64,000 bases of DNA. Origin: Agromyces sp. LHK192. Lineage in GTDB: Bacteria; Actinomycetota; Actinomycetes; Actinomycetales; Microbacteriaceae. Below are positions 1-64,000 of this stretch, one piece after another; positions within the stretch are counted from its first letter, which is position 1, and each line of letters begins with the position of its first letter. The notes beneath the pieces are model-generated. The model saw only the letters and a list, made by a program, of their open reading frames with translations, was not told where the DNA came from and searched no databases. The stretch lies in contig NZ_CP034753.1 of the NCBI RefSeq assembly GCF_004006235.1, positions 434,001-498,000 of the forward strand. The letters are read 5' to 3'. The position numbers and the translations under genes are program-made.

Positions 1-285
1 CTCGACTTCTTCGACGACGGCCCCGTCAAACCGGTCCGCATCTGGAGCAGGATCGGGCGACGCCCGCTGCTCGCCGGAGGCAACTCGAACGGGGACATGG
101 CGATGCTCGACTTCGCGCGCAAGGGCGGCGGGATGGCGCTCCTGGTGCATCATGACGACGACTCCGGTCGTGGCGACCAGCCGTACGACGCCGGAGCCGA
201 GCGGGCGCTCGGCGCGGCATCCGATCGCGGCTACACGGTCGTCAGCGTCAAGCGCGACTGGACCGACGTCTTCCCGGAGGCCTGA
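1..285 (+). CDS. HAD-superfamily hydrolase, C-terminal fragment
   Basis: The gene enters from the left edge; only the last 94 residues are visible. Visible residues 26-36 read GGNSNGDMAML, the HAD motif IV (Asp-containing GD loop that binds Mg2+). A lysine at visible residue 10 could be motif III. Such proteins are mostly cytosolic phosphatases with an Asp nucleophile, but the nucleophile motif lies outside the window, so the substrate cannot be named. The stop (TGA 283-285) is 4 bp before the GTG of the SulP gene, suggesting co-transcription. Family membership is fairly safe; the specific activity is unknown. Confidence 0.8.
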   Translation, partial: LDFFDDGPVKPVRIWSRIGRRPLLAGGNSNGDMAMLDFARKGGGMALLVHHDDDSGRGDQPYDAGAERALGAASDRGYTVVSVKRDWTDVFPEA

Positions 286-289
286 CCCG

Positions 290-1945
290 GTGGCCCGGCC
301 CGCGACGCCCGCGAGGCCCCCGGCGGCGCGCCGGTTCCGTCTCTTCCCGACGCTGGTCGGATACCGGCGCGGATGGCTCGGCCCCGACCTCCTCGCCGGG
401 CTCTCGGCCGGGGCCGTCGTCATTCCACAGGCCATGGCGTACGCCACGATCGCGAACCTGCCGGTGCAGCTCGGGCTCTACACCTGCATGGTGCCGATGC
501 TCGTCTACGCGATGCTCGGCGGCTCTCGGGCGATGAGCGTGTCGACCACGTCGACCATCGCCACGCTCACCGCCACCACCCTCGTCAGCGCCGGTATCGC
601 CGCGGGTTCCGACGACCCGGTGCCCGACCTCATCGCCCTCACGCTCCTCGTCGGCGTCATCCTGCTGCTCGCACGGCTCGCCAGGCTCGGCTCGCTCGTG
701 GAGAACATCTCGCAGGCGACGATCGTCGGCATCCAGATCGGCGTCGGCGCGACCGTGGCGGTCGGTCAGTTGCCCAAGCTCCTCGGCGAGACCGGGAACC
801 CGTCGGGCGAGGGCTTCTTCGCCGCCGTGAACGCCGCGGTGCGGGCGCTGCCGACGGTGCACCTGCCCACCGTCGTGCTGTCGGCTGCGTCGATCGCGGT
901 GCTGCTCGTGCTGAAACGGCTGCTCCCCAGGGTTCCTGCGCCGCTGGTCGTCGTCGCCGCGGGCATCCTGCTCGTCGCCCTCACGCCCGTCGAGGACCAG
1001 GGCCTCGAGCTCATCGCCGCGGTGCCGCAGGGGTTCCCGCCGCTCGAGCTGCCGACCTTCGCGGACCTCGGTCCCATGGTCCCCGGGGCGCTCGCCATCG
1101 CCGTCATGGCCTTCCTCGAGTCGGCGGCCGTGGCGCGAGGCATCCGCCGCCTCGGCGAGCCGCAGGTCGACAGCAACCAGGAGCTGTTCGCGACCGGCGC
1201 CGCGAACGCGGTCGGGTCGTTCTTCCAGGTGCTGCCCGCGGCCGGCGGTTTCTCGCAGAGCGCGGTGAACCAGGGTGCAGGTGCCAGGACGCAGCTCTCG
1301 TCGATCGTGACCGTCGGGCTCGCCGTGCTCGTCGCGCTCTTCCTCGGGCCGGTGCTGAGCCTGCTCCCGCAGGCGACGCTCGCGTCGCTCGTGTTCGTCG
1401 CCGTCATCGGGCTCATCGACGTGCGGTCGCTCGTACGGTTCCGGCGGATCAGCCGCAACGACTTCTGGATCGCCACGATCACCGCGATCGTCGGCCTCAC
1501 GGCGGGCCTGCTGGTCGCGGTGGCCGTCGGCGTGATCGCGACCCTCATCGTCGTCCTGCGCGAACTCGACCGGGTGCGGATCGAGGCCGACGAACCGCGC
1601 GACGGCGTGCTTCCGATCCGCCTGCTCGGCCCGCTGTACACGGCGAACATACTCGCGTACGAGACCGCGATCCTCGGCGACGTGGACGCCCGGCCGGACA
1701 TCCGCGCCGTCGCGCTCGAGCTGACGCGGCTCGAAGTCGTATCGGTCACCATCCTCGACGGGCTGGCCGAACTCGACCGGGAGCTCGAAGCCCGCGGGAT
1801 CGAGCTCCGCCTTGCGGCCGTTCCCGAAGCGGGCGCAACCGCGGCCCGGCGAGGCACCTGGTTCACCGGGCTCGAGGCAGCCGGCCGCGTGCACCCGACG
1901 CTCGAAGCAGCGGTCGCCGCACCGCCGACGGAGCAGCGGACCTGA
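290..1945 (+). CDS. SulP family anion permease with C-terminal STAS domain
   Basis: A 551-residue integral membrane protein of the SLC26/SulP family, which moves sulfate, bicarbonate or other anions across the cytoplasmic membrane. Residues 43-65 carry the family signature around VIPQAMAYA, followed by about ten hydrophobic segments up to residue ~430. Residues ~440-535 form a STAS-like domain. The start is taken as GTG 290, 4 bp after the upstream stop, because the reading frame upstream of it overlaps the HAD gene and has no family similarity. The substrate cannot be read from the sequence: no carbonic anhydrase domain is fused and no sulfate assimilation genes are adjacent. It converges with aspS across a short hairpin. 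Confidence 0.88.
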   Translation: MARPATPARPPAARRFRLFPTLVGYRRGWLGPDLLAGLSAGAVVIPQAMAYATIANLPVQLGLYTCMVPMLVYAMLGGSRAMSVSTTSTIATLTATTLVSAGIAAGSDDPVPDLIALTLLVGVILLLARLARLGSLVENISQATIVGIQIGVGATVAVGQLPKLLGETGNPSGEGFFAAVNAAVRALPTVHLPTVVLSAASIAVLLVLKRLLPRVPAPLVVVAAGILLVALTPVEDQGLELIAAVPQGFPPLELPTFADLGPMVPGALAIAVMAFLESAAVARGIRRLGEPQVDSNQELFATGAANAVGSFFQVLPAAGGFSQSAVNQGAGARTQLSSIVTVGLAVLVALFLGPVLSLLPQATLASLVFVAVIGLIDVRSLVRFRRISRNDFWIATITAIVGLTAGLLVAVAVGVIATLIVVLRELDRVRIEADEPRDGVLPIRLLGPLYTANILAYETAILGDVDARPDIRAVALELTRLEVVSVTILDGLAELDRELEARGIELRLAAVPEAGATAARRGTWFTGLEAAGRVHPTLEAAVAAPPTEQRT

Positions 1946-1964: not shown

Positions 1965-1966
1965 GC

Positions 1967-3316: not shown

Positions 3317-3358
3317 AGCAGCACATCCTACCGGCCGGGAATGAGCGTGGTCCTCCGG

Positions 3359-3429: not shown

Positions 3430-3470
3430 CTCGGCGAATTCGAAGGAACCGGCTCCGTAGACTGGAATCC

Positions 3471-4781: not shown

Positions 4782-5534
4782 GTGGGGCCGGGCGAGCTCG
4801 TCTTCAGCGGGCAGCTCTTCGTCGCGATCCCCATCGCCCTGGCCGCCGGCCTCATCTCGTTCCTCTCGCCGTGCGTGCTGCCCCTCGTCCCCGGGTACCT
4901 CGGCTACATCGGCGGGTTCACGGATGCCTCCGCCGACGCCGCGACCGAACGCCGCAACCGCCGCCGCCTCCTGCTCGGCGTGACGCTGTTCATCGCGGGC
5001 TTCACGGCGGTGTTCCTGCTCTACACGGCGCTCGCCGGTGCCGCCGGCGCGTGGCTGCGCATGTGGCAGGACCCGATCACGCGCGTGCTCGGCGTGGTGC
5101 TCATCGTCATGGGCCTCGTGTTCATCGGCCAGTTCACGTTCCTCCAGCGGCAGCTGAAGCCGACCTGGCGGCCCGCGACCGGGCTGGCCGGCGCACCCCT
5201 GCTGGGCGTCGTGTTCGGCCTCGGCTGGACGCCGTGCATCGGCCCGGCCCTCGCCGCGGTGCTGAGCCTCAGCCTCAACGCCGAGTCGGCGTGGCGCGGC
5301 GCCCTGCTCGGGCTCGCGTACTGCGTCGGCCTCGGCATCCCGTTCCTGCTCGTCGCGCTCGGCTTCGGCTGGGTGACGGGCTCGATGGCGTTCCTGCGGC
5401 GCCACATCCGCACCATCAACCTCATCGGCGGCGCACTGCTGATCGTCATCGGCATCGTCATGGTGTCGGGACTGTGGACCGCCTGGATGAGCGAACTCCA
5501 GGGGGTGATGAGCGGTGTCGACCTCCTCCTCTGA
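4782..5534 (+). CDS. ccdA: Cytochrome c biogenesis protein CcdA
   Basis: 250 residues and about six hydrophobic segments. The two signature cysteines are present: LSPCVLPL (Cys31) and GWTPCIGP (Cys152). CcdA carries reducing equivalents across the membrane from cytosolic thioredoxin to extracytoplasmic thiol proteins such as the TlpA-like lipoprotein just upstream. GTG 4782 follows the lipoprotein stop by 1 nt. The 3' end overlaps the resB start by 20 bp, so translational coupling is likely. Confidence 0.93.
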
Positions 5535-7296
5535 CCGGAACCGGAACCGGAACCGATCCGAGCCGGACGACGTGAGCGACGCGCACGACCCGTTGCGTCC
5601 GGCCGACCACGTCGACTCGGTCGAGCCCGACCCGAAGGACTCGGGCGACGGCGTGAGCCGCCCGAAGCTCGGCGTCGTCGGCTGGCTCCGCTTCGGCTGG
5701 CGGCAGCTCACGAGCATGCGCACGGCGCTGCTCCTGCTGCTGCTCCTGGCGATCGCGGCCGTGCCGGGATCGCTCGTACCGCAGCGGTCGAGCGACCCGA
5801 ACGGCGTCACCCAGTACTTCCAGGACAACCCCGACCTCGCGCCGGTGCTCGACTCGTTCCAGATGTTCGACGTCTACACGTCGGCGTGGTTCTCGGCGGT
5901 CTACCTGTTGCTGTTCCTGTCGCTGATCGGGTGCATCATCCCGCGCACGAAGCACCACCTCGAGGCGCTGCGGGCGCGCCCGCCTCGCACGCCGGTGCGG
6001 CTGTCGCGGCTCGCCGGCTACACCGAGCGCGACCTCGCCGTGGCGGACGGCCAGACGACGGATGCCGCCGCCGAGGCCGCGATCGACGATGCGGCCAAGC
6101 GGCTCGAGGCGCAGGGCTACCGCGTCGAGCGCTATGACCTGCGGGGGGAGGCATCCGTCTCCGCGGAACGCGGCTACCTCCGGGAGACCGGCAACCTCGT
6201 GTTCCACACCGCTTTGCTCGGCATCCTCGTGACCGTGGGCGTCGGCGGCGGATTCGGGTTCTCGGGCCAGCGCGTCGTCGTCGAGGGCCAGTCGTTCGTC
6301 AACACGCTCGCCGCGTTCGACTCGTTCAACCCCGGGCGCTTCTTCGACGACGAGCGGCTCACGCCGTACCGGCTCGGCCTGGACGACCTCGACGCCGTCT
6401 ACGAGACGCAGAACCCCGAGGCGATCGGGCAGCCGATCGACTTCACCGCGCACGTCACCGTCGACAGCGAGGACGGCGCGGTCGAGGGCACGGTCAAGGT
6501 CAACGAGCCGCTGCGCACGCACGGCACCGACGTGTACCTCCTCGGCAACGGCTACGCGCCCACGATCACCGTGCGCGACCCGGACGGCGAGATCGTCTTC
6601 ACCGACTCCGTGCCGTTCCTGCCGCAGGACGCGAACCTCACCTCGATCGGCGTCGTCAAGGTGCCCGACGGGCTCGACGAGCAGCTCGGCATGATCGCGT
6701 TCTTCTACCCGACGCAGGACGTGCTCGAGACGGGCGCGTACACGTCGACCTACCCCGACCTGTTCTACCCGGTGCTGACGATGAACGTGTACGAGGGCGA
6801 CCTCGGCCTCGACGACGGCACCCCCACGTCGGTGTACTCGCTCGACCCGACCGACATGCGCCAGCTCACGGGCGGCGACACCGGGGTCGACTCCATCGAG
6901 CTCATGCCGGGCGAGACCGCCGACCTCCCCGACGGGCGCGGAACGGTCACGTTCGAGGATGCCTCGCCGAGCGGGGATGCCGCCGCCTCCGGCGACTACT
7001 CGCAGAGCGTGAAGCGGTTCGCGTCGTTCGACATCCACCACGACCCGACCCAGATCTGGGTGCTGGTCTTCGCGATCCTGATCCTCGCGGGGCTGCTGAC
7101 CTCGCTCTTCGTGCCGCGTCGTCGCATGTGGGTCAAGGCCGCGAAGCGACGCGACGGCACCGTCGTGCTCGAGTACGCCGGACTCGCCCGGGGCGAGGAC
7201 CCGACGCTCGAGGCGGCCGTGACGGCGCTCGCCGACGCGCACGTGGGGCCCGCGGCATCCGCTGCCCGTGAAGAATCCTCGAAGCCCGCGACGTAA
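5515..7296 (+). CDS. resB: Cytochrome c biogenesis protein ResB (System II)
   Basis: 593 residues. A charged cytosolic N-terminus of ~60 residues is followed by transmembrane segments near residues 65-82, 125-145 and 228-248, a large extracytoplasmic domain, and a last segment near residues 515-535. ResB with CcsB forms the System II haem export and ligation complex. The N-terminal Arg-Asn repeat (RNRNRN) is encoded by three CCGGAA units (5535-5552). Start GTG 5515 lies inside the ccdA 3' end. The protein is longer than firmicute ResB, as usual in actinobacteria. Confidence 0.92.
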
Positions 7297-7305: not shown

Positions 7306-8394
7306 GTGACATTCACGCTCGACGAGATCTCGGTGCTCTGCGTGTACTCGGCGCTGGCCGTGTACGCGATCGCGTTCATCGCCTACTCGCTCGACCTCGC
7401 TCGCCGGGGCGCGGTCGCGGCGCAGGCGGCCGATGCGAAGGCCGCCGAGGCGGAGGCCGAGGCCGAGGCGGCGCTGGAGCCCGCGACGGTCGGAGCCGCG
7501 CTCGCCGCGCAGCGGTCGGCCGCTGCCGCCGGCGCGTCCGCTGCCGCGGGCGGCGGCGAGCTCGATGCACCCGTGAAGCGCTCGCGCTGGGCGCGGGCGA
7601 CCGAGGCCGGGGCATCCGTCGAGTACGGGCGCTCGCCGTCGCTGCGGGTCGCCGTCGCGATGACCGTGCTCGCCTGGGTGCTGCACTTCGCCGGCGTGCT
7701 GCTGCGCGGCCTCGCGGCCGGCCGCGTGCCGTGGGCCAACATGTACGAGTTCGCGCTCACCGGCACGCTCATCGTCACCACGGTGTTCCTCGTCGTGCTG
7801 CTCGTCGTGAAGCAGGACCTGCGCTTCCTCGGCACGTTCGTGACCGGGCTCGTGCTCGTGCTCCTCGGCGTCGCGACCGTGAACTTCCGGGTCGACGTCG
7901 TGCCGCTGCCGCCGGCGCTCCAGTCGGCGTGGCTCGTCATCCACGTGTTCGTCGCGACGGCGTCGGTCGGGTTCTTCGCACTCGGCTTCGCCCTGTCGCT
8001 GGTGCAGCTGCTGCAGGCCCGGCGAGAGGCCGTCGTGGCCACCGCGGAGTCCGTCAAGCGGTCGTTCCTCGCGACGCTGCCCGACTCGACGACACTCGAG
8101 AACCTCGCCTACCGCGTCAACATCGTGGGCTTCATCTTCTGGACCTTCACGCTCATCGCCGGCGCGATCTGGGCCGAGAAGGCGTGGGGCCGCTACTGGG
8201 GTTGGGACACCAAGGAGGTGTGGACCTTCATCATCTGGGTGGTCTACGCCGGGTACATCCACGCGCGCGCGACGCGCGGCTGGCGCGGCACCCGGTCGGC
8301 CTGGCTGTCGATCATCGGGTTCTCGGCGGTGCTCTTCAACTTCACCGTGGTGAACCTGTTCTTCAAGGGCCTGCACGCCTACTCGGGCCTGTAG
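7306..8394 (+). CDS. ccsB: Cytochrome c biogenesis protein CcsB/CcsA
   Basis: 362 residues with about eight transmembrane segments. The WGRYWGWDTKEVW stretch (residues ~295-307) is the tryptophan-rich haem-handling WWD motif, and conserved histidines flank it. An Ala-rich cytosolic loop (residues ~35-100) is inserted after the first transmembrane segment. It works with ResB to deliver haem to apocytochrome c. GTG 7306 lies 9 nt after the resB stop. The stop TAA with the next bases forms TAAGGT, 6 nt before the GTG, so an internal leaderless promoter is possible. Confidence 0.92.
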   Translation: MTFTLDEISVLCVYSALAVYAIAFIAYSLDLARRGAVAAQAADAKAAEAEAEAEAALEPATVGAALAAQRSAAAAGASAAAGGGELDAPVKRSRWARATEAGASVEYGRSPSLRVAVAMTVLAWVLHFAGVLLRGLAAGRVPWANMYEFALTGTLIVTTVFLVVLLVVKQDLRFLGTFVTGLVLVLLGVATVNFRVDVVPLPPALQSAWLVIHVFVATASVGFFALGFALSLVQLLQARREAVVATAESVKRSFLATLPDSTTLENLAYRVNIVGFIFWTFTLIAGAIWAEKAWGRYWGWDTKEVWTFIIWVVYAGYIHARATRGWRGTRSAWLSIIGFSAVLFNFTVVNLFFKGLHAYSGL

Positions 8395-18996: not shown

Positions 18997-19045
18997 CCCC
19001 TCATCGTGGCATCCGTCGCCTGATCGATCGAGCGGGCGCGGAAAC

Positions 19046-19058: not shown

Positions 19059-19991
<933 letters not shown>

Positions 19992-39835: not shown

Positions 39836-39970
39836 CGCGTTCGCAGCGGTCGGATGCCCCGGATCGGACGGGTTCTCGGACCAGTTCCCCCGTTCAGGGG
39901 AAAATATCGGCTCGTCCGCGTACGCTTGAGCGACCGGTACCCCCCAACCTCACCGGCAGACGGAGCAACC

Positions 39971-41910: not shown

Positions 41911-42204
41911 TCAACCGGCCTTCGGCTCCGGCACGATGCGCATGCCGGATGCCCCGTTCGCCGAGTCGATGAGCTCCTCGAGCCAGAGCCGGTTGATGTC
42001 GGACACCGCCCCGTCGAACTCGAAGCGCAGCGTCGCGGCGGGGTTGATCCACACCTGCTGACGTCCTCCGCCCTCGGACTCGACGGAGAGCGCGAAGCTC
42101 TCCTTGCGCCGGAGCTTCGCGAGCACGACGAATTCCACGTGCGCGAGCGTGCGGTCGGGGAGCTCGAAGGAGGCCGGAGGCGAGCCGTAATGCAGGTGTC
42201 CCAT
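41911..42204 (-). CDS. Paralogue A of a small actinobacterial family of unknown function
   Basis: 97 residues. It shares with the genes at 43431 and 43753 the pattern Y...F.DR.LAH...V..AKLRR.E.FA, then GR..VW, F-E-F and a C-terminal IVPEP. The predicted fold is beta-rich with one helix. Members are sometimes labelled 'ATP-dependent DNA ligase' in databases (from memory), but no ligase motif such as KxDG is present. The gene is leaderless: TAGGAT on its strand (42212-42217) is 7 nt before the ATG. Convergent with the bacteriophytochrome gene. Confidence 0.82.
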   Translation of the reverse strand: MGHLHYGSPPASFELPDRTLAHVEFVVLAKLRRKESFALSVESEGGGRQQVWINPAATLRFEFDGAVSDINRLWLEELIDSANGASGMRIVPEPKAG

Positions 42205-47867: not shown

Positions 47868-47971
47868 CCTCCGGCAGCGCCGCCGGCGGCGACGCGATCC
47901 GTCGCCGAGGCGCTGCTCGGATGAGCGATCCGTCGGTGTCGCGTGGCGAGAACGGATGCCTCGGGGTACGC

Positions 47972-51968: not shown

Positions 51969-52022
51969 CGGATGCCTGAAACCAATTGGTCACAGACCGG
52001 TATCAAAACGCCGCTCCCGGTT

Positions 52023-53557: not shown

Positions 53558-55179
<1,622 letters not shown>

Positions 55180-55180: not shown

Positions 55181-56178
55181 TGGCTGCGAACCACCCCGTA
55201 TCCGGCAGCCAGGCGGGCCTGCTCGCCGGCGAGGCGGACGAATTCTCGGATGCCTCGACGCGCGCGCACTCGACCCGCGGCGGCAGCGCCGGCGAGGGCG
55301 GATACGTTCCGCCGAAGCGCCCGTTCCGGTTCGGCCGCTGGTTCGGCCAGACCGGCTGGCGCCACGTCGTCGGCGTCGTGATGGTCGTGTTCTCGCTGTT
55401 CCCGATCGTGTTCGTGATCTCGTCGTCGCTGAACCCGAACGGCACGCTCACCGGATCGAACGCGCTGTTCTCGAAGATCGGGTTCGACAGCTACGTGCGC
55501 ATCCTCTCCGACCCGCAGGTGCCGTTCACGCAGTGGTTCGCGAACACGCTGATCATCGCGGGCATCACGGCGCTCGGCACCGTGTTCCTCGGCGCGCTCG
55601 CGGCGTACTCGTTCTCGCGGATGCGGTTCACCGGGCGGCGGTTCGGGCTCGTCTCGATCGTGGTCGTGCAGATGTTCCCGCAGCTGCTCGCGGTCGTGGC
55701 GATCTTCCTGCTCATGTCGACCATCGGCGACCTGTTCCCGGCGATCGGCCTCAACACGCACATCGGCCTGATCATGGTCTACCTCGGCGGTGCGCTGGGG
55801 GTGAACACGTTCCTCATGTACGGCTTCTTCAACACCGTGCCCGCGTCGATCGACGAGGCCGCGAAGATCGACGGGGCCGGGCACGCACGCATCTTCTTCA
55901 CGATCATCCTGCGGCTGGTCGCACCGATCCTCGCGGTCGTCGCACTGCTGTCGTTCATCACGAGCGTCAACGAGTTCGTCGTCGCCTCGGTCATGCTGAT
56001 CGACACGGAGAAGCAGACGCTCGCCGTCGGCCTGACGAAGCTCGTCTCCAACCCGCGCTACGCGGACTGGTCGGCGTTCTCGGCGGGTGCCGTGATCGCG
56101 GCCGCGCCGGTCGTCGCCCTGTTCCTGTTCCTGCAGAAGTACATCGTCGGCGGGCTCACCGCGGGTGCGGTGAAGTAA
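55180..56178 (+). CDS. malG: Maltodextrin ABC transporter permease MalG
   Basis: 332 residues, six helices. The EAA loop is VPASIDEAAKIDGAGHARIFFTIILRLVAPI. The N-terminus has a ~60-residue polar extension (SQAGLLAGEADEF...) not seen in E. coli MalG. ATG 55180 shares its first base with the malF stop (TGATG), so translation is coupled. It pairs with MalF to form the channel. Confidence 0.93.
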
Positions 56179-56226: not shown

Positions 56227-58083
56227 ATGCTGACGCCGCACCACGACGGATCCCCGCTGCACGTCTCGAACGCCGCTCCCGAGCTCGGCGAGGTCGTGCG
56301 GGTTCGCCTGCGCGTGCCTTCCGGGTTCGGCCTGCTCGACTGGGTGGGCACGCGCTCGAACCCGAACCGCGAACCGCGGTACAGCGAGGCCCGACTGATC
56401 GGCGCCGCCGCCGGGTGGAACTGGTGGGAGGCCGACGTCGAGGTCGAGAACCCGGTGCACGGCTATCGTTGGCTCCTGGTCGGCGAGGACGGCCGGCAGC
56501 ACTGGCTGAGCCAGGCCGGCCTGTCGAGGGTCGAGACCCGCGACCAGGACGACTTCAGGCTGGTCGCGCACGAGCCCGCGCCAGATTGGGCGGCGGCGAG
56601 CGTGCTGTACCAGGTCTTCCCCGACCGGTTCGCGAGGTCGGATGCCGCCGCCGAGCGCGTGTGGCCCGAGTGGGCGATCCCGGCGTCGTGGGGCGACGCC
56701 GTCGACCCCGAGCCGCCCGGGCGGTCGCAGCAGGTCTTCGGCGGCGACCTCGACGGCGTCCGCGAGCGGCTCGACCACCTCGTCGGCCTCGGCGTGAACC
56801 TGCTGTACCTCACGCCCGTGTTCCCGGCGCGATCGAACCACCGGTACGACGCGTCCACGTTCGACCGGGTCGACGACCTGCTCGGCGGCGACGACGCGCT
56901 GGTGCGGCTCGTCGAGGCGGCGCACGCACGCGGCATCCGCGTCATCGGCGACCTGACGTCGAACCACTCGGGCGACGCGCACGAGTGGTTCCGCACTGCG
57001 CAGGCCGACCCCGACTCGATCGAGCGCGGGTTCTACCTCTTCCGAGAGGACGGCTCCTACGAGTCGTGGCTCGGGGTGCCGAGCCTGCCGAAGTTCGACT
57101 GGTCGTCGGTCGAGCTGCGCCGGCGGTTCATCGAGGGTCCCGACTCGGTCGTCGCCAGGTACCTTCGGGCCCCGTTCTCGCTCGACGGCTGGCGCATCGA
57201 CGTTGCGAACATGACCGGTCGCATCGGCGCGGTCGACCTGAACGCCGAGGTGCGCCAGACCATCCGGGCGACGATGGTCGCGGTGAACCCCGACACGATC
57301 CTGCTGGGCGAGTCGACGAACGACGCGGCATCCGACTTCCAGGGCGACGCGTGGCATGGCGCCATGACGTACACGCCGTTCACCAGGCCGATGTGGAGCT
57401 GGTTGCAGCAGCCGGGCGGCCCGGCGGCCGGCGGCATCGGGTTCGCGCGCAATGCCGTGCCGACGTTCACCGGCAGCGAGTTCGTGGAAGCCCACCTGCG
57501 GTTCGCCGCGGGGTTCCCGTGGCGCACGCGGCTCGCGACGATGAACGCGCTCGACACGCACGACACGCCCCGGTTCCTCACGCACTCGCGCCCGGGCACG
57601 GTGCCGGTCGCGTTCGGGCTCGCCGTGACGATGCCCGGCATCCCGGTGGTCTGGGCCGGCGACGAGTTCGCGCTCACGGGCGAGGACGGCGAGGCGAGTC
57701 GCACGCCGATCCCGTGGGGCTCGGAGGACGACCCCGAGGTCGCGCCCACGATCGAGGCCTACCGCGACCTCGTCGCGCTCCGGCGCGAGCACGAGGTGCT
57801 GCAGATGGGCGGCATCCGCTGGCTGGAGGCATCCGACGACGCCGTCGCGTTCGTCAGGGAGGCGGCGGATGCCTCGGTCCTCGTGTTCGCCGCGCGAGCT
57901 GCGGCCCGGCTCGACCTCGATGCGGATGCCCTGCCGCAGCTCGCGGGCGGCGTCGGCGCCGTCGAACTCGCGGCGTTCGGGGAGTTGCGGCTCGAGGCAT
58001 CCGACGCCGGTACCGTGCTCGCGGCGACGGGCGCCGCGTTCGGCGCCTGGCTGTTGCCGGGAGTCGCGGCACCGCGGCAGTAG
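56227..58083 (+). CDS. GH13 cyclomaltodextrinase/neopullulanase-like enzyme
   Basis: 618 residues, no signal peptide. An N-terminal CBM34-like beta domain (~1-120) precedes a GH13 barrel with catalytic Asp in DGWRIDVANM, Glu in ILLGESTND and Asp in DTHDTPRFLT. YQVFPDRFARSDAA places it in the cyclomaltodextrinase/maltogenic amylase/neopullulanase group. It probably cleaves maltodextrins imported by MalEFG. ATG 56227 is favoured because GGAAGG (56212-56217) is 9 nt upstream; ATG 56221 and GTG 56218 sit too close to it. Confidence 0.9.
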   Translation: MLTPHHDGSPLHVSNAAPELGEVVRVRLRVPSGFGLLDWVGTRSNPNREPRYSEARLIGAAAGWNWWEADVEVENPVHGYRWLLVGEDGRQHWLSQAGLSRVETRDQDDFRLVAHEPAPDWAAASVLYQVFPDRFARSDAAAERVWPEWAIPASWGDAVDPEPPGRSQQVFGGDLDGVRERLDHLVGLGVNLLYLTPVFPARSNHRYDASTFDRVDDLLGGDDALVRLVEAAHARGIRVIGDLTSNHSGDAHEWFRTAQADPDSIERGFYLFREDGSYESWLGVPSLPKFDWSSVELRRRFIEGPDSVVARYLRAPFSLDGWRIDVANMTGRIGAVDLNAEVRQTIRATMVAVNPDTILLGESTNDAASDFQGDAWHGAMTYTPFTRPMWSWLQQPGGPAAGGIGFARNAVPTFTGSEFVEAHLRFAAGFPWRTRLATMNALDTHDTPRFLTHSRPGTVPVAFGLAVTMPGIPVVWAGDEFALTGEDGEASRTPIPWGSEDDPEVAPTIEAYRDLVALRREHEVLQMGGIRWLEASDDAVAFVREAADASVLVFAARAAARLDLDADALPQLAGGVGAVELAAFGELRLEASDAGTVLAATGAAFGAWLLPGVAAPRQ

Positions 58084-58491: not shown

Positions 58492-59769
58492 TCACTGCTG
58501 GGTGGTCAGGAGGATGCCCGTCACCAGGACGCTCGCACCGCACGGCGTGGCCGTCGGACCGGCGACGGCCGGCGTGCACACGACCTTGATGAACAGTTCG
58601 TCCTCGCTCTGGAGTTCGACCGGCGTCACGAAGTGGTAGTCGATGTCGCGGAAGTTCTCCATCCCGGTCGAGATGATCGGTGCCGCGACATCGGCGTTCT
58701 CGATCGTGAGGGTGCCGAACGACCCCGACGGATTCTGCAGCACCAGGTCGGTGATGCGGAACTGCGCGTTCGCGGGGATCGTGAACCGCTCGCTCTCGTC
58801 CTCGCCGTTGGCGGCCGCCGAGGCGCTGAACCGCAGGTCGATCTCGTTGCTGGTCACGGTCGGCCCCGGGGCGACCGGATCGATCGGCTCCGTCGGCTGC
58901 CCGACCGCGGCCTTCGCCTCGTTCGCGCTCTGCGCAGCCTGATCGGCCTGTTGCGCAGCGGCATCCGCCTTGTCCTGCGCCTCCGCGACCGGACCCTCGA
59001 TCGCCTCCTTCGCGGTCGCCTCGATCGCGGGCTTCAGCACCAGGAACCAGAGCGCGATGAGCGCGAGCAGCAGCAGGAGCAGCGCGAGCAGCGCCTTCCA
59101 CAACCACCTCGGGAACATGCGCAACTGCGTGTAGCTGCCGTCGAGGGTGCGCGGCTCGGGTGCGCCCTCGCCCTCGGGCACCACGGTGAGCTGGAACGGA
59201 TGGTTGAGGTCCTGCCCGCGCCACACGCGCTTGCGCGGGTGCAGGTCGACGTCGACGAACAGGGCGTGCCCGGGGTCGACGTCGATGTCGGGCGTGGGCG
59301 TCGTGATCGTGAGGGCGTCGCTGCTGGTGCCGGCGATCGAGGCGGAGAGGGGTGTGCTGCCTCGGTTGTCGACCGCCAGGCGCACGCGCTTGCGGCCACG
59401 ACCGCGGGAGATCCGCGGGACGAGCTCGGCGTCGAGCTCGGCGAACGGGAGGATCTGCAGGTCCGCCTCGGCGGACGCGGCGAACTCCGGCTGCTCGGTG
59501 GGCAGCACCCGGACGCCGACCGCGACGGTGCCGGGCAGGGCCTCCGAGGTCCGCGGCGGCGACACGACGACGACCGCCGTCTCCTTGGTGCCCGGGTAGA
59601 TCGTCAGTCGCTCGGGCTGGATCGTCGCCCACCCGGCCACCGGTCCCACGGGCGAGAGCGCGTAGGACTCGACGAGCAGCGAGTCGTTCGCGACGGTCAG
59701 GGTGAACGTCGCGGACTCGCCCGGGAGGACTGACGCCGAGCCGGGCTCGAGCGTCGCAGTGGTCGCCAT
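58492..59769 (-). CDS. Ig-like/transmembrane protein encoded with PAAR
   Basis: 425 residues. Residues ~1-100 and ~105-220 are two beta-sandwich (NEW1/CARDB-like) domains, ASVLPGESATFTLTVAND being typical. A transmembrane helix (~227-248: KALLALLLLLLALIALWFLV) is followed by an Ala-rich coiled coil (KADAAAQQADQAAQSANEAKAAV) and a C-terminal beta domain ending in CTPAVAGPTATPCGASVLV. There is no signal peptide, so the first domains are probably cytosolic. Database names such as 'hydrolytic protein' are used for relatives (from memory), but no catalytic motif is visible. ATG 59769 is preceded by TACGTT with 6 nt spacing on its strand. Confidence 0.72.
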   Translation of the reverse strand: MATTATLEPGSASVLPGESATFTLTVANDSLLVESYALSPVGPVAGWATIQPERLTIYPGTKETAVVVVSPPRTSEALPGTVAVGVRVLPTEQPEFAASAEADLQILPFAELDAELVPRISRGRGRKRVRLAVDNRGSTPLSASIAGTSSDALTITTPTPDIDVDPGHALFVDVDLHPRKRVWRGQDLNHPFQLTVVPEGEGAPEPRTLDGSYTQLRMFPRWLWKALLALLLLLLALIALWFLVLKPAIEATAKEAIEGPVAEAQDKADAAAQQADQAAQSANEAKAAVGQPTEPIDPVAPGPTVTSNEIDLRFSASAAANGEDESERFTIPANAQFRITDLVLQNPSGSFGTLTIENADVAAPIISTGMENFRDIDYHFVTPVELQSEDELFIKVVCTPAVAGPTATPCGASVLVTGILLTTQQ

Positions 59770-59951
59770 GTCGCCAACGTAGGACCGCCCTTCCATTCGG
59801 GACGAGGGCCGCAAGGTCACCGGCGAGTGCAGATCGGTTGCCCGTTGAGTCCTTGTTTAGTGCGCGAAGAGCACCGGGGAGGAGGATGACCGGCATCCGC
59901 ACGAACCCGATGACCACGCGCGGACCCGAACGATCTTCAGAGGGGGAGATC

Positions 59952-60572
59952 ATGACCCGAACGACGGTGCGCGTCTTCGCGCGCGATCCGATATCCGAGG
60001 CCGGCGTGGCCAGCCAACTTCGTCCGAGGCCCGAGGTGCGCGTGGTCGCGCCGGAGGAGGAGCCGCCCGACGTCGTGCTCGTCATCGTCGAGCGTGTCGA
60101 CGACGAGGCCGTCAACTCGATCCGCTTCCTGCGCCGCAACGGCGACGCCCAGGTCGTGCTCGTCGTCTCCGACCTCGACGACCAGGGGCTCGTGCGTGCC
60201 GTCGAGAGCGGCGTCGTCGGGCTCGTCCGGCGGGCCGAGGCGACGCCCGACAAGCTCACCGCCGCCGTCGTCGGCGCCGGTCGGGGCGAGGGCAGCGTGC
60301 CCCCGGACCTGCTCGGGCGACTCCTCGACCAGGTCGGTCGCCTCCAGCGCACCGTGCTCGACCCCCGCGGACTCACGTTCAACGGGCTCTCGTCGCGCGA
60401 GGTCGAGGTGCTCCGGCTCGTGGCCGAGGGCTGCGACACCGCGCAGATCGCCCGCCAGCTGTCGTACTCGGAGCGGACCGTGAAGAACGTGCTGCACGAC
60501 GTGACCACCCGGCTCCAGTTGCGCAACCGCTCGCACGCGGTCGCGTACGCGGTTCGGGAGGGGCTGATCTGA
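59952..60572 (+). CDS. LuxR-family regulator divergent from the PAAR/Ig-like genes
   Basis: 206 residues. Residues ~1-120 resemble a receiver domain without the usual Asp phosphorylation pocket (RVFARDPISEAGVASQLR...DVVLVIVERVDD), so it may be phosphorylation-independent. Residues ~140-206 are a LuxR helix-turn-helix (LSSREVEVLRLVAEGCDTAQIARQL). ATG 59952 has the RBS-like AGGGGGAG (59941-59948). Similar short pseudo-receiver regulators occur beside PAAR genes in Streptomyces (recalled, not verified), so it may control the PAAR/Ig-like operon. Confidence 0.82.
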   Translation: MTRTTVRVFARDPISEAGVASQLRPRPEVRVVAPEEEPPDVVLVIVERVDDEAVNSIRFLRRNGDAQVVLVVSDLDDQGLVRAVESGVVGLVRRAEATPDKLTAAVVGAGRGEGSVPPDLLGRLLDQVGRLQRTVLDPRGLTFNGLSSREVEVLRLVAEGCDTAQIARQLSYSERTVKNVLHDVTTRLQLRNRSHAVAYAVREGLI

Positions 60573-60646
60573 GGCATCCGCGGGGTTGCCGGCGCGACGG
60601 CGGCACGGAACGGATGCCGCTGCCCGTGCGGGCAACCCCGGATGCC
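60573..60646. repeat. Large imperfect hairpin after the LuxR gene
   Basis: GGCATCC (60573-60579) and GGGGTTGCC (60582-60590) pair in order with GGCAACCCC (60631-60639) and GGATGCC (60640-60646), leaving a 2-nt bulge and a ~40-nt structured loop. It starts directly after the TGA and probably acts as terminator. Both ends are copies of the window's over-represented 7-mer. Confidence 0.6.
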
Positions 60647-60720
60647 CCGAACGGTGCCCGGCGCCCCACCGGCGCCGGCGCCGGCCGGCCGCAAGGTTGA
60701 ACCGTGGCGAGAGGAACCCG

Positions 60721-63700
60721 ATGCGCAGGCTGCGACCGCTGATCGCGATCGTCGCCGCCGCCCTGATGGTGGTGACGGGGTCGGTCGTGCCCGCGTCGGC
60801 GGTGGAGACGCCGGGCGGAGGGACGAGCGACGGCAGCGGGTCGCCGACCTGGGACCCGTCGAACGGTTGGACGCGCGACGGTGTCGCGGTCGACGGTCCC
60901 GCCAACGGCGAGGGGTTCGACCTGGAGATCGCGGCCACGCCGGATCCGGTGAACGAGGGCGAGACCACGACCGTCACCTTCACGGTGACCAACCACGATG
61001 AGTTCGTCGCCGAAGGTGCGGAGGAACTCCTCGTCGCAGTGTCGTGGGTACCCGAGGAATTCGCCCCGGTGCTCGATCCACCGAACGACGCCCGATGGGC
61101 GACCCTCGCGACCGGCGGCGCGAACTACCGGTTCGACGCCGTCGGACCCCACGGCCCGGGTGCCGTCTGCGTGCTCGACGGAATGGGGCCCGCCGCCACC
61201 GCGCCGACCAAGTCCTGCACGGTGCAGTTCCGACACCTCGGCGGTGAGCCGAGTGCGAGCCGGTTCTCCGCACGCATCGTCACCTGGGCGGATCATCAGA
61301 TCGTCGAAGGCCCGGACATCCTGCAGCCGCTGAGCACGCCGGCGGACGCATTGACGTCGACCTTCGTGGATGTCGCGGTGTCCGACGGCCCCGATGACGG
61401 CGAGCACTTCGACATCTCGATCGAGGCGGAGCCGACCACGGTGTCGCGAGCCGAGACGTTCGAGGTCACGATCACGGTGCGGAACTACGATGTGGAGCCG
61501 GCGGGCGGCGCCGATGCGCTGCTCGTCTCGCTGTTGTGGCCCGACGGATCCGTGGTGCCGGTGGAGGACCCCGCCGGCCCGAACGCGTGGCGCCACGCGT
61601 CCGACGGCTCGTTCGACGAACGCTGGCCCGAGGCATCCGGAGACCAGTGCCTGATCGAGGGGGTCGACGAGCCGGGGGAGTCGGCGGTCGGAAGATGCAC
61701 CGCGACCCTCCAGCAGTGGACGATGCCCCCGGGTGAGACTGTGCTCACCGCGCGAATCGATGCCTGGGCACAGGTCGGCGACTACGGCGGTGAGCCGTTC
61801 CTGGAGTACATCGGCATCGGCGGGGAGTACCGGTCGAGTGCCACCACGGCGGTTCCGGCGGGACCGTCGGATCCGCCGGACGATGGAGAGGGGTTCGACG
61901 TGTCGATCACGCACACCCCCGACCCGCTGCGGTGGGGGCACCGGTTCGAACTCCGGGTCACGGTCACGAACCACGATGTGCCCCTTCCCGACGCCGATCC
62001 GTATGAAGACGAGCCGTTCCTGGTCCCGGTCCGGCTGGACTGGGACAGTGCCGCGTTCCGACTTCCGCTGGAGCCCGGGTACGTCGACGGCTGCGACTTC
62101 TGGGATGACTCGGAGTTGGACGAATCCGTGCTGCCCGGGACCGGCGGGTTCGACCGCTGCTACCTCGTCGGACTCGACGCACCCGGTTCGTCCGTGTCGT
62201 TCACCGTGCCGTTCCGGGTGTCCGGCCCCCGGCCGGCGACCAGCGACCTCGAGTTCACGGCGACCGTCGACCACTGGGCCTGGTACTGGGGTGACGGATA
62301 CGACTTCGCCCCGGTGAACCCTGCGATCGCGACCCATGCGATCCCGGTCGCCTCGCCCTTCGAACTCCGGGTCGAGCAGTACGAGTTCCTCGACCTCGGC
62401 GCGGTCGGCGCGGTCACCCCCGTGCTCGCCCGGTACACGGTGTTCAGCAGCGAGGCGCAGTTGCGCGGCATCGACGACGCCGAACTCGTCGTCCGGCTCG
62501 GTTGGCCGGAGGGGATGACCCTCGGCGGTGCGCCGCCTGCGGGCTGCGTCGCCGTCGTTCCGCGAAGTCTGGACTGCACCATCGACGACGCGAACGAACT
62601 GGGAGCGAATCCCGAGGCGCCGAACGACGACGAGTGGCAGCTCCTCGTCGAGGAATGGGATCTGAACCTGACGCTTCCTGCGGCGCAGTCCCAGCGGGAA
62701 CTCCTGAGCGCCTTCACGATCGACTTCGTGAGCGGCTGGACCTACACCGAGCCGATCATCACCATCGCGTCCGACCCGGCCTCGGCGCGGCCGCTCGGCG
62801 GATTCGGTCGCAGCGTGGCCGGACACGCACCCGCCGTGCTGCCGCTGGCGTCGCCGACACCGCCCGGCGGAGTCACCATGACGGCCGACTGGGCGGATTC
62901 CGCCAGCACGCCGTTCGCGATCCTCGACCGTGTGTTCCCGACCGAGACGATCGCGTCCGTGTCGAACGCGGTGCCCGGCGGCGACGACGTCGAAGTCACG
63001 TTCCGGGTGACGCATTCGCCCGAGGTGACGACCGTGCTGCCCGGCGTCGAGGTCGCCGTCGCACTCGATTGGCCGGACATCCTCGTGCCCACGGGCGACC
63101 CGGCCGAATGCGACGAGTTCGTCGCCCAGATCTGCACGATCACCGGCCTCGACGAACCGGGATCCTCGGTCGACATCAGTATGACGTTCGAGGTACCGGA
63201 GACCGCGTGGGGGTTCGGGCGGTTCGCGATCTCCGGCGATGGCGTGATGATCGTCGAGTCCAATTCCGACGGCGACATCGAGCACGACTATCCGCCGAGT
63301 TGGGTCGAGGACTCCGACGCCCCGATCACCGTGCTCGCGAACGTCTTCGAGACGCAGGTCACGCTGGACCGCGACCGCACGTGGCCCGACGGGAGCGACG
63401 TGCTCGTCACCGTCCGAGTGCAGTGGTCGAAGGCGCTGCCGCAGGACATCCCGCCGACGCGGGTGTTCGTCGGTCTCGAGTTCGACTGGCCGGATGCCGT
63501 CGCCGACCTGGTCGATCCGCCGGGAATCGTCGGGTGCGATCCGCTCGACGACGGGATCTGCTACCTGCAGGACTGGTTCGGACCCGGCGATGCCAGGGAG
63601 GTGACCTTCCGGCTCGATCCGGTCGCGGTCGGCGCGCTGGAGGTCGCCGCGATGCCCGCCGCCATCGGAGTCGGAGTGCCCAACGATGCCTCCGAGCTCC

Positions 63701-64000
63701 CGATCGAGTGGCTCGGCGGCGATGAGGCATCCGCCACGGTCGTCGACGCGCAATTCGATGTCGACCTGGTGCTCGATCGCAACCCGATCTACCACGGCGG
63801 CCTGCCGATGCGCGCGAAGGCGACGCTGACGCGGGGTCCCGCCACCGACGGCGGTGCCGGGTACGACCCGACGCTGCCGAACACCGAGGTGGAGTTCGCC
63901 TTCACCTGGCCGACGACGAGCCCGCCGGGTCAGCCGACGACGCACCTCACGCTCAGCGGCGCCGAGAACTGCCCCGGCTTCGCCGTCGACACCTGCGTGA
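60721..64000 (+). CDS. Large secreted repeat protein (surface/adhesin-like), partial
   Basis: The frame is open from ATG 60721 to the right edge: 1093 codons and no stop. RBS-like GAGAGGA precedes the ATG. Signal peptide ~1-27 (ends PASA). Beta-sandwich, DUF11-like modules follow; the first three start with the related blocks GEGFDLEIAATPDP (residue 63), GEHFDISIEAEPTT (227) and GEGFDVSITHTPDP (389), each later reading TVTN or TVRN then HD or YD, so the period is about 163 residues. Later modules (to 1093) diverge but keep Cys-x-x-x and LDEPGSS-like blocks. Any anchor or sortase signal would lie beyond the edge. The role could be adhesion or surface display; no enzyme motif is visible. Confidence 0.85.
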   Translation, partial: MRRLRPLIAIVAAALMVVTGSVVPASAVETPGGGTSDGSGSPTWDPSNGWTRDGVAVDGPANGEGFDLEIAATPDPVNEGETTTVTFTVTNHDEFVAEGAEELLVAVSWVPEEFAPVLDPPNDARWATLATGGANYRFDAVGPHGPGAVCVLDGMGPAATAPTKSCTVQFRHLGGEPSASRFSARIVTWADHQIVEGPDILQPLSTPADALTSTFVDVAVSDGPDDGEHFDISIEAEPTTVSRAETFEVTITVRNYDVEPAGGADALLVSLLWPDGSVVPVEDPAGPNAWRHASDGSFDERWPEASGDQCLIEGVDEPGESAVGRCTATLQQWTMPPGETVLTARIDAWAQVGDYGGEPFLEYIGIGGEYRSSATTAVPAGPSDPPDDGEGFDVSITHTPDPLRWGHRFELRVTVTNHDVPLPDADPYEDEPFLVPVRLDWDSAAFRLPLEPGYVDGCDFWDDSELDESVLPGTGGFDRCYLVGLDAPGSSVSFTVPFRVSGPRPATSDLEFTATVDHWAWYWGDGYDFAPVNPAIATHAIPVASPFELRVEQYEFLDLGAVGAVTPVLARYTVFSSEAQLRGIDDAELVVRLGWPEGMTLGGAPPAGCVAVVPRSLDCTIDDANELGANPEAPNDDEWQLLVEEWDLNLTLPAAQSQRELLSAFTIDFVSGWTYTEPIITIASDPASARPLGGFGRSVAGHAPAVLPLASPTPPGGVTMTADWADSASTPFAILDRVFPTETIASVSNAVPGGDDVEVTFRVTHSPEVTTVLPGVEVAVALDWPDILVPTGDPAECDEFVAQICTITGLDEPGSSVDISMTFEVPETAWGFGRFAISGDGVMIVESNSDGDIEHDYPPSWVEDSDAPITVLANVFETQVTLDRDRTWPDGSDVLVTVRVQWSKALPQDIPPTRVFVGLEFDWPDAVADLVDPPGIVGCDPLDDGICYLQDWFGPGDAREVTFRLDPVAVGALEVAAMPAAIGVGVPNDASELPIEWLGGDEASATVVDAQFDVDLVLDRNPIYHGGLPMRAKATLTRGPATDGGAGYDPTLPNTEVEFAFTWPTTSPPGQPTTHLTLSGAENCPGFAVDTCV

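What the first reader, a model, noticed from the sequence alone, without database searches (positions are those of the whole stretch)
1..64000. A 7-mer, GGATGCC/GGCATCC, is greatly over-represented across the whole window
Reading the window by eye I count roughly 115 copies (about 50 GGATGCC and 60 GGCATCC on the plus strand), about one per 550 bp; simple base composition at ~70% G+C would give about 15. Many copies read GAT GCC (Asp-Ala) or GCA TCC (Ala-Ser), although GAT and GCA are otherwise rare codons here, so the motif is being kept against codon preference. Copies read as GGC ATC are ordinary codons and explain only part of the excess. Non-coding copies exist (e.g. 51969, 60573, 60612, 60640). 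It behaves like an iterated genome element such as HIP1, Chi-like or uptake-like sequences, though non-palindromic.
Basis: partly seen in the sequence, partly recalled or inferred. Interest (0 to 1): 0.7.

Follow-up and report, generated by a model that had tools for sequence, protein, structure and literature searches.

The report
Genome-wide DNA motif with genus-specific dialects
This soil bacterium and many of its relatives carry thousands of copies of a short DNA word that overrides their normal codon choice and even shapes their proteins, with different genera using different versions of the word; it looks like the self-recognition tags some bacteria use when they take up DNA from their own kind, though that function is untested.

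Summary
Confirmed: 116 copies of GGATGCC/GGCATCC in the window (13.7 expected), 5,764 in the 4.09-Mb genome (an Agromyces, Microbacteriaceae). The motif is longer, CGGATGCC[CGT]C (2,930 copies; reversed control 69). It survives a codon- and dinucleotide-preserving null, has no replication-strand bias, is nearly Poisson-spaced, and lies in genes and intergenic DNA. Where a protein permits the 10-mer, 283 of 523 sites use it (21 expected); peptides able to encode it are doubled. Copies are conserved between species. Within the order sampled, the 10-mer excess is confined to Microbacteriaceae, where other genera have variants ('dialects') such as ACGGATGC, TGGATGCG, CGGATCCG, CAGGATCC; one genus holds species of both GGATGCC and GGATCC type. 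A second family has GTATGCCG. Best explanation: a DNA-uptake-sequence-like self tag maintained by biased transformation (inferred). ComEC is in 245 of 249 genomes, but neither pilus marker closely tracks the motif, no receptor was found, and depletion from foreign DNA is only partly seen. A methylation-linked HIP-like element is the main rival; methyltransferases were not surveyed. RecBCD-Chi is disfavoured (no RecC in 41 genomes). The papers searched list no report of it.

The parts
1..64000 (.). whole window: 116 copies of GGATGCC/GGCATCC, of which 66 are the full 10-mer CGGATGCC[CGT]C
   Evidence: the 50 copies that are only the 7-mer are listed
214..223 (-). CGGATGCCGC
1137..1146 (-). CGGATGCCTC
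4921..4930 (+). CGGATGCCTC
6059..6068 (+). CGGATGCCGC
6148..6157 (-). CGGATGCCTC
7252..7261 (-). CGGATGCCGC
7609..7618 (-). CGGATGCCCC
9136..9145 (-). CGGATGCCTC
10310..10319 (+). CGGATGCCCC
10523..10532 (+). CGGATGCCCC
10813..10822 (-). CGGATGCCTC
11126..11135 (+). CGGATGCCGC
11553..11562 (+). CGGATGCCCC
11912..11921 (+). CGGATGCCTC
12451..12460 (-). CGGATGCCGC
14164..14173 (-). CGGATGCCTC
14270..14279 (+). CGGATGCCGC
16273..16282 (-). CGGATGCCTC
18302..18311 (+). CGGATGCCGC
18783..18792 (+). CGGATGCCTC
19102..19111 (+). CGGATGCCGC
20255..20264 (+). CGGATGCCCC
20987..20996 (+). CGGATGCCCC
21070..21079 (-). CGGATGCCCC
21107..21116 (+). CGGATGCCGC
22492..22501 (+). CGGATGCCGC
23580..23589 (-). 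CGGATGCCGC
23906..23915 (-). CGGATGCCTC
24878..24887 (-). CGGATGCCGC
26519..26528 (+). CGGATGCCTC
27319..27328 (-). CGGATGCCCC
27621..27630 (-). CGGATGCCCC
29008..29017 (+). CGGATGCCTC
30930..30939 (-). CGGATGCCCC
31898..31907 (+). CGGATGCCCC
32292..32301 (+). CGGATGCCCC
35014..35023 (-). CGGATGCCTC
36731..36740 (+). CGGATGCCTC
36997..37006 (-). CGGATGCCCC
37058..37067 (+). CGGATGCCTC
37273..37282 (-). CGGATGCCGC
37807..37816 (+). CGGATGCCGC
39851..39860 (+). CGGATGCCCC; its 7-mer core is intergenic
41946..41955 (+). CGGATGCCCC
45673..45682 (-). CGGATGCCGC
46706..46715 (+). CGGATGCCTC
47953..47962 (+). CGGATGCCTC; its 7-mer core is intergenic
48815..48824 (-). CGGATGCCGC; its 7-mer core is intergenic
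50568..50577 (-). CGGATGCCGC
51169..51178 (-). CGGATGCCTC
51643..51652 (+). CGGATGCCGC
53645..53654 (-). CGGATGCCGC
55247..55256 (+). CGGATGCCTC
56639..56648 (+). CGGATGCCGC
56930..56939 (-). CGGATGCCGC
57325..57334 (-). CGGATGCCGC
57809..57818 (-). CGGATGCCGC
57826..57835 (-). CGGATGCCTC
57866..57875 (+). CGGATGCCTC
57994..58003 (-). CGGATGCCTC
58958..58967 (-). CGGATGCCGC
60571..60580 (-). CGGATGCCTC; its 7-mer core is intergenic
60611..60620 (+). CGGATGCCGC; its 7-mer core is intergenic
60639..60648 (+). CGGATGCCCC; its 7-mer core is intergenic
61630..61639 (-). CGGATGCCTC
63724..63733 (-). CGGATGCCTC
19008..19014 (-). intergenic copy, 7-mer only
51970..51976 (+). intergenic copy, 7-mer only
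59892..59898 (-). intergenic copy, 7-mer only

Best explanation
The motif is a DNA-uptake-sequence-like self tag. A cell-surface or uptake protein is proposed to prefer DNA that carries the lineage's own word (CGGATGCC[CGT]C here). Fragments with the word are then taken up and recombined more often, so alleles that contain it replace alleles that lack it. Over time this drive fills most sites where the protein sequence tolerates the word. As the receptor's preference drifts, genera acquire different but related dialects. Shown: the enrichment, saturation, conservation, lack of orientation, and the dialects. Inferred: that DNA uptake is the process, and that a receptor exists.
For: Length, asymmetry and density (one 10-mer per 1.4 kb) resemble DUS/USS. 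Strands are balanced and the 10-mer has no replication-strand bias. Saturation in coding DNA: 283 of 523 permitted sites used, 21 expected, against 4 of 484 (5.4 expected) for the reversed control word; in CGGAYGCCBC, GAT 111 and GAC 5; in GVG-GCN-TCC-G, GCA 124 of 132. Synonymous near-misses are depleted: CGGACGCCBC 21 vs 59, CGGAGGCCBC 12 vs 38; variants at the first, ninth and tenth base stay 1.6-6.2 fold enriched, as for a graded binding preference. Peptides able to encode the motif are raised about twofold (198 vs 95.5 and 243 vs 137; reversed-peptide controls 107 vs 98 and 143 vs 139). An 8-mer core copy is kept in a relative at 0.42-0.84 per identity bin vs 0.25-0.55 for anagram 8-mers. 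Related dialects, each highest in its own genomes, with an apparent switch inside genus g106: G221 has CRGGATCC 985/872 and CGGATGCCBC 55/44, G271 has 191/200 and 692/710. A related word, GTATGCCG, occurs in a second family. ComEC is in 245 of 249 family genomes, including a 98%-complete one of 0.9 Mb; TadE in 36 of 41. Of three Herbiconiux genomes, the most motif-rich (G434, the same assembly as G099) has PilM and TadE; the two others have neither.
Against: No transformation has been shown for Agromyces in anything I read. No receptor was identified or searched for. PilM is absent from motif-rich Agromyces G004, G008 and G023 and present in the least motif-rich of the five sampled, G022. PilM-positive genomes have a higher median ratio (6.8 vs 2.6), but uncorrected for phylogeny, and within 14 genera that vary there is no difference (7 of 14 positive). 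Herbiconiux G437 and G439 lack PilM and TadE yet have CGGATGC at 3.4 and 4.2 times its control. ComEC is also in motif-poor genomes, so it does not discriminate. Depletion from foreign DNA is only partly seen: the tenth of genes with the most atypical codon use has an average density (1.40 per kb; range over classes 1.05-1.73), and a stretch with a terminase gene in G023 is as rich as its neighbours (25 vs 4.7 expected). Inverted motif pairs, common at Neisseria terminators (recalled), are not evident. Genome G184 is rich in both GGATGCC- and GGATCC-type words, so dialects are not strictly exclusive. One dialect (GGATCC core) is palindromic, which also suits a methylation-linked element.
Confidence: 0.55

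Rival explanations
1. A HIP-like, methylation-linked element. An orphan methyltransferase modifies the word, and methyl-directed repair or another process tied to methylation favours mutations that create it; dialects follow changes in methyltransferase specificity.
For: HIP1 in cyanobacteria is similarly dense, and alternate HIPs accompany methyltransferases of matching specificity (PMC4390886: abstract, section 2.6 and the first of two parts of section 3.4 read). One dialect here, CGGATCCG, is palindromic. Asymmetric methyltransferase sites of 4-6 bp exist (Type III m4C systems, PMC8259958, passages), so asymmetry alone does not exclude methylation; the one Microbacterium system in the passage seen has an unrelated site, AGCGCC.
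Against: The Agromyces motif is long and non-palindromic with graded flanks, and the strong Microbacteriaceae dialects are small changes around GGAT rather than unrelated sites. No C-to-T hot spot appears among single-base motif losses, which argues against m5C but not against m6A or m4C. Spacing is near-Poisson and slightly clumped rather than evened out by saturation. Methyltransferases were not surveyed.
Confidence: 0.22
2. A Chi-like recombination signal for a non-RecBCD enzyme (AdnAB type), protecting or directing repair of self DNA.
For: Density and length are in the range of Chi, and Chi differs between taxa (recalled).
Against: No replication-strand bias for the 10-mer, 158 vs 182; the small lagging bias of the 7-mer, 351 vs 287, fits the excess of antisense copies in genes. 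RecC is found in 0 of 41 genomes. AdnAB was not searched; mycobacterial AdnAB is Chi-independent (recalled).
Confidence: 0.1
3. A binding site for an abundant chromosome-organising protein, selected directly for coverage of the chromosome.
For: Genome-wide, unoriented and present in intergenic DNA.
Against: No even spacing. Dialect changes at thousands of sites would need slow replacement with no recombination drive (inference). Protein sequences have been reshaped, which needs a strong per-site force.
Confidence: 0.08
4. Codon or dinucleotide bias alone.
For: GGC-ATC-C copies are near codon expectation, 141 vs 105. Under a maximal-order Markov model the 7-mer does not stand out from its own 6-mers.
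Against: The 10-mer is 20-fold (sense) and 7.6-fold (antisense) above a codon- and dinucleotide-preserving null, and intergenic DNA holds 88 7-mers vs 16.9 expected.
Confidence: 0.01

Closest known systems
DNA uptake sequence (DUS) and its dialects, Neisseriaceae
   Same: 10-12 bp, thousands of copies, taxon-specific dialects around a core (PMC3630211, passages); conserved more than their surroundings (PMC2397512, passages); non-palindromic and on both strands, in coding and intergenic DNA (recalled)
   Different: Gram-positive high-GC host; no ComP-like receptor known; uptake untested; inverted terminator pairs not evident; sequence differs
Uptake signal sequence (USS), Pasteurellaceae
   Same: short core with weaker flanking preference and similar density (recalled)
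   Different: different sequence and phylum; function untested here
HIP1 and alternate HIPs, cyanobacteria
   Same: very high density; replaced by alternate words in some lineages (PMC4390886: abstract, section 2.6, first part of 3.4)
   Different: HIPs are palindromic and tied to methyltransferases; the Agromyces word is not palindromic, and its methylation is unknown
Chi sites
   Same: short, over-represented, taxon-specific (recalled)
   Different: no replication orientation; RecC absent from the 41 genomes tested

Membership tests
DNA uptake sequence (DUS/USS) | short (9-12 nt) motif in gross excess on both strands | tested here: met
   CGGATGCCBC 1,487+1,443 vs reversed control 33+36
DNA uptake sequence (DUS/USS) | excess independent of codon use, in coding and non-coding DNA | tested here: met
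DNA uptake sequence (DUS/USS) | copies conserved between related species beyond background | tested here: met
   (control: anagrams of the same bases, not matched for codons)
DNA uptake sequence (DUS/USS) | taxon-specific dialects with a shared core | tested here: met
   strong Microbacteriaceae words share GGAT; GTATGCCG of the second family shares ATGCC with GGATGCC but not GGAT, and the weaker Rathayibacter and g57 words share only GGA
DNA uptake sequence (DUS/USS) | rare in accessory or foreign DNA | tested here: inconclusive
   poorer in a 63-kb contig with a terminase gene (23 7-mers vs 12.8 expected, 3 10-mers) and absent from a 6.5-kb low-GC island; but a terminase stretch of G023 is as rich as its neighbours and the genes with the most atypical codon use have average density
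DNA uptake sequence (DUS/USS) | host has the DNA-uptake machinery | tested here: inconclusive
   ComEC 245 of 249; PilM 123 of 249; TadE 36 of 41; neither pilus marker closely tracks the motif
DNA uptake sequence (DUS/USS) | motif increases DNA binding, uptake or transformation | not testable with these tools
   needs an experiment
DNA uptake sequence (DUS/USS) | sequence-specific receptor (ComP-like) | not tested
   no candidate was found or searched for
HIP | palindromic word | tested here: not met
   Agromyces word is non-palindromic; only the GGATCC dialect has a palindromic core
HIP | cognate methyltransferase | not tested
Chi | oriented with replication | tested here: not met
   158 vs 182, taking base 1 of the contig as origin and its midpoint as terminus
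Chi | RecBCD present | tested here: not met
   RecC PF04257 in 0 of 41 genomes, E. coli control positive; AdnAB not tested

The most novel reading that the evidence does not exclude
Actinomycetota use a family of DNA-uptake words with dialects (CGGATGCC[CGT]C, ACGGATGC(CG), TGGATGCG, CGGATCCG, CAGGATCC, GTATGCCG), a self-recognition code for transformation in Gram-positive bacteria. Dialects can switch between species of one genus and would act as genetic isolation barriers. The drive is strong enough to fill about half of all permitted coding sites and to double the matching peptides in the proteome.
Probability: 0.48. Interest if true: 0.93.

Novelty: new variant of a known kind. Interest (0 to 1): 0.83.

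Why it matters
If these are uptake words, they would be, to my knowledge (recalled; the papers searched showed no counter-example), the first DUS-like system in Gram-positive bacteria. They would imply widespread transformation, present or recent, in a large family where I found little on it, give a practical handle for transforming these genera (add the right word to the donor DNA), and offer a dialect switch inside one genus as a natural experiment on genetic isolation.

Tried and rejected
Codon or dinucleotide bias was rejected. Oriented signals (RecBCD-Chi, KOPS-like) were disfavoured. Very-short-patch repair was not supported: the C-to-T neighbours of the 7-mer are not depleted (GGATGTC 137 vs 49.9, GGATGCT 99 vs 56.6 at order 2; 114.9 and 99.8 at order 4) and there is no C>T hot spot among motif losses. 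Pilus genes as the determinant: PilM does not track the motif within genera, and TadE and PilM are missing from two of three Herbiconiux genomes. Evened spacing or terminator pairs: not seen; spacing is slightly clumped (70 gaps of 60 bases or less vs 52 expected, 25 empty 2-kb bins vs 15). Local divergence around motif copies is not distinctive: flank identity minus alignment mean is 0.0153 for the motif, 0.0130 for control words, 0.0241 for random sites. Weak or absent dialects: Plantibacter, Naasia, Leifsonia SCN 70-46, g67, g73 and g36 showed no clear word in 60-80 kb, nor did Labedella in 43 kb; g73 has GCGGATC 29 vs 6.0 under a Markov model only. The words for Rathayibacter (CGGAGTCG, 3.4-fold) and g57 (GGAGGCGC, 2.4-fold against codon usage) are weaker and were picked post hoc. 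The reversed control for CRGGATCC contains CCTAGG and is low in most genomes, so for that word I judged genomes against each other, not against the control. One search crashed on masked bases and was rerun. Genes were called by my own simple script, not by a standard gene finder.


Full report
OBSERVATION. GGATGCC/GGCATCC occurs 116 times in the window (53 and 63 on the plus strand) against 13.7 +/- 3.6 in 100 dinucleotide shuffles. It is the most over-represented 7-mer under order-1 to order-3 Markov models, among words seen more than ten times; under a maximal-order model it is not in the top 15, since its own 6-mers carry the excess. The window is bases 434,001-498,000 of a one-contig genome of 4,088,319 bp, which holds 2,906 + 2,858 copies; the same word read backwards gives 153 + 158. 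A protein of the window (aspartate--tRNA(Asn) ligase type) has Agromyces species as its best matches, up to 90% identity, so the host is taken to be an Agromyces, family Microbacteriaceae.

ANATOMY. In 464 kb (window plus 20 evenly spaced 20-kb stretches) the motif extends to CGGATGCC[CGT]C, usually followed by G. The whole genome holds 1,487 + 1,443 copies of this 10-mer (reversed control 33 + 36). Against a synonymous shuffle within 415 called genes the 10-mer is 123 vs 8.6 in sense and 160 vs 16.8 in antisense; with dinucleotides across codon borders also preserved (genes pooled), 123 vs 6.2 and 160 vs 21.0. Intergenic DNA has 1.69 7-mers per kb against 1.33 in genes. Spacing is near-Poisson (sd/mean 1.04) and slightly clumped (70 gaps of 60 bases or less vs 52; 25 empty 2-kb bins vs 15); there is no replication-strand bias for the 10-mer (158 leading, 182 lagging), and copies are spread along genes. 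The 7-mer is slightly commoner on the lagging strand (351 vs 287, p 0.013), which fits its antisense excess in genes. Density is lowest in the genes of most typical codon use (1.05 per kb) and average (1.40) in the most atypical tenth. The replichore test takes base 1 as origin and the midpoint as terminus; the majority gene strand changes over near there.

STRENGTH. Where the protein allows the 10-mer, it is used at 283 of 523 sites; codon usage predicts 21. The reversed control word is used at 4 of 484, 5.4 predicted. In the context CGGAYGCCBC, Asp is GAT 111 times and GAC 5 times, while GAT is 11.8% of Asp codons overall; in GVG-GCN-TCC-G, Ala is GCA 124 of 132 times against 6.4% overall. 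In the window alone these are 22 of 22 and 28 of 28. Synonymous near-misses are depleted (CGGACGCCBC 21 vs 59; CGGAGGCCBC 12 vs 38). Variants at the first, ninth and tenth base stay 1.6-6.2 fold enriched; most variants of the other bases are at 0.3-2.0, with exceptions (sixth base A 4.5; eighth base A 4.2, T 3.7). The proteome is affected: peptides [TSPA]DA[PAS] occur 198 times against 95.5 in shuffled proteins (reversed peptide 107 vs 98), and [EAG]AS[AEGDV] 243 against 137 (reversed 143 vs 139). Because of this, the 523 permitted sites are not a neutral set: some exist because of the motif. Among 21 Agromyces sequences (20 named loci and the first 30 kb of the window), an 8-mer core copy is kept in a relative at 0.42-0.84 by identity bin, against 0.25-0.55 for anagrams of the same bases. 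Single-base losses show no C-to-T hot spot. The bases around a copy are not distinctive compared with control words.

DISTRIBUTION. All 36 other same-genus genomes are rich in the 7-mer (1,300-3,039 per strand). The 23 genomes from other families have 252-1,023 per strand, which is still mostly 1.3-4 times their reversed control, so the 7-mer alone is mildly raised there. For the 10-mer, 249 Microbacteriaceae genomes range from control level to more than 1,500 per strand: the ratio to control is at least 5 in 109, 2-5 in 71 and below 2 in 69; 44 of 85 genera have a genome at 5 or more. In 139 genomes of 19 other families of the order it is near its control; the few higher ratios, up to about 6, come from genomes with fewer than 40 copies per strand. 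Other orders were not searched.

DIALECTS. Genomes poor in the Agromyces word often have another. With codon-aware nulls on 60-120 kb per genome (pooled loci for Cryobacterium, 305 kb, and Mycetocola, 64 kb; the figures here are): Leifsonia Leaf264 ACGGATGC 45 vs 3.7; Glaciibacter superstes ACGGATGC 43 vs 3.9; Cryobacterium ACGGATGC 118 vs 13.2; Leifsonia Root227 TGGATGCG 45 vs 6.6; Leucobacter CGGGATCC 52 vs 9.9; Frondihabitans CAGGATCC 25 vs 2.5; G106 CAGGATCC 41 vs 5.5; G093 CGGATCCG 45 vs 5.4; G221 CGGATCCG 30 vs 4.7. ACGGATGC is also 8-10 fold in Agromyces, where it overlaps the local word. Most words are near 1 in genomes that do not use them, with exceptions such as CAGGATCC 4.1-fold in Leucobacter. 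Leifsonia poae, Arenivirga, Herbiconiux 1786 and strain VKM Ac-2854 show intermediate, mixed GGATGC-type enrichment. An independent whole-genome count of CRGGATCC singles out g56 (4 of 4 sampled genomes, 947-1,169 per strand), g26 (4 of 5 at 550-951, the fifth at 368/373; identified as Frondihabitans because the PilM hits of G063 and G450 have the same coordinates), g69 (860/831) and G221 (985/872). These hold only 21-56 copies per strand of the Agromyces 10-mer, at 1.1-4 times its control. Exclusion is not strict: G184 has 596/586 of CRGGATCC and 552/551 of the 10-mer. G221 belongs to genus g106, whose members G164 and G271 have the GGATGCC type (494/461 and 692/710) and 247/229 and 191/200 of CRGGATCC: an apparent dialect switch inside a genus. 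Plantibacter, Naasia, Labedella, Leifsonia SCN 70-46, g67, g73 and g36 showed no clear word. The strong Microbacteriaceae words share GGAT; no single core covers every word listed.

A SECOND FAMILY. Of five genomes from five other families of the order, four show nothing comparable and one (G053, family f18) has GTATGCCG 55 times in 80 kb against 1.4 expected (order-2 model; 45 vs 2.8 in genes against a codon- and dinucleotide-preserving null). 98% of its 57 TATGCC are preceded by G and 98% followed by G, and 25 of its 29 TAT codons lie in the motif. It is also in a congener, G383 (8 vs 0.2 in 20 kb), and in another genus, G313 (9 vs 0.4), but not in G328 (1 vs 0.4). GTATGCCG differs from GGATGCCG at one base.

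MACHINERY. ComEC is in 245 of 249 family genomes, including a 98%-complete one of 0.9 Mb. PilM is in 123 of 249 and TadE in 36 of 41 tested. In Micrococcus luteus, an actinobacterium, Tad-like pili and ComEC are needed for transformation (PMC4322843, passages including the abstract). PilM-positive genomes have higher motif ratios (median 6.8 vs 2.6, p 2e-5, uncorrected for phylogeny), but within 14 genera that vary there is no difference, and motif-rich Agromyces without PilM exist. Of three Herbiconiux genomes, the most motif-rich (G434, the same assembly as G099) has both PilM and TadE; G437 and G439 have neither yet carry CGGATGC at 3.4 and 4.2 times its control. RecC is absent from 41 of 41. 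Methyltransferases and AdnAB were not surveyed.

FOREIGN DNA. Terminase genes were found in 4 of 60 Agromyces genomes. The 63-kb contig of G461 (about 62% GC) has 23 7-mers against 12.8 expected and 3 10-mers, poorer than an Agromyces chromosome, though G461's own chromosome was not measured; the terminase stretch of G023 has 25 against 4.7, like its neighbours. A 6.5-kb low-GC stretch of the host genome has no copy. So depletion from foreign DNA is suggested, not shown.

INTERPRETATION. The package (long asymmetric word, saturation of permitted sites, no orientation, conservation, related dialects, reshaped peptides) matches DNA uptake sequences as described for Neisseriaceae (PMC3630211 and PMC2397512, passages) better than HIP (palindromic, methyltransferase-linked; PMC4390886, abstract, section 2.6 and first part of 3.4) or Chi. 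Asymmetry alone does not exclude a methyltransferase (PMC8259958, passages). The uptake function, the receptor and the drive are inferences. Literature searches for the words themselves and for uptake sequences or methylomes in this group listed no report of the motif, judged from titles and abstract openings; most subscription journals and all preprints are outside that library.

Noticed in passing
G053 (family f18), loci L226-L229; also L238, L239: A second family of the order has a sharply defined 8-mer, GTATGCCG (55 vs 1.4 expected in 80 kb), that accounts for 25 of 29 TAT codons.
   Followed up: partly
G221 against G164 and G271 (genus g106): One species of a genus uses a GGATCC-type word while two congeners use the GGATGCC type: an apparent dialect switch.
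   Followed up: partly
G184 (genus g79): This genome is rich in both the Agromyces 10-mer (552/551) and CRGGATCC (596/586): two words at once, or one in transition.
   Followed up: no
G000:C1:1225814-1232268 (locus L015, 1813-8268): A 6.5-kb island without any motif copy, GC 66% and atypical codon use: probably recent foreign DNA.
   Followed up: no
G461 contig 11 (L189-L192): A 63-kb contig of about 62% GC carrying a large-terminase gene in an Agromyces assembly, motif-poor: perhaps a phage or phage-plasmid.
   Followed up: partly
many Microbacteriaceae genomes: CGAGCAG/CTGCTCG and GCAGCAC-type words exceed a synonymous null in several genomes; in the seven genomes, tested with dinucleotides across codon borders preserved, they do not lead, so probably dinucleotide context.
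   Followed up: no
Agromyces loci around the aspS-like gene: The word GGGATGCG is 82% conserved between Agromyces sequences (717 comparisons), far above the other six control words; probably one strongly conserved site.
   Followed up: no
reduced Microbacteriaceae genomes, e.g. G069, G072, G074, G118: ComEC is kept even in genomes of 0.9-1.6 Mb that lack this motif, which suggests DNA import is under selection there too.
   Followed up: no
1967-3265: Gene matching a non-discriminating aspartate--tRNA(Asn) ligase (NF003483, above cutoff).
   Followed up: no
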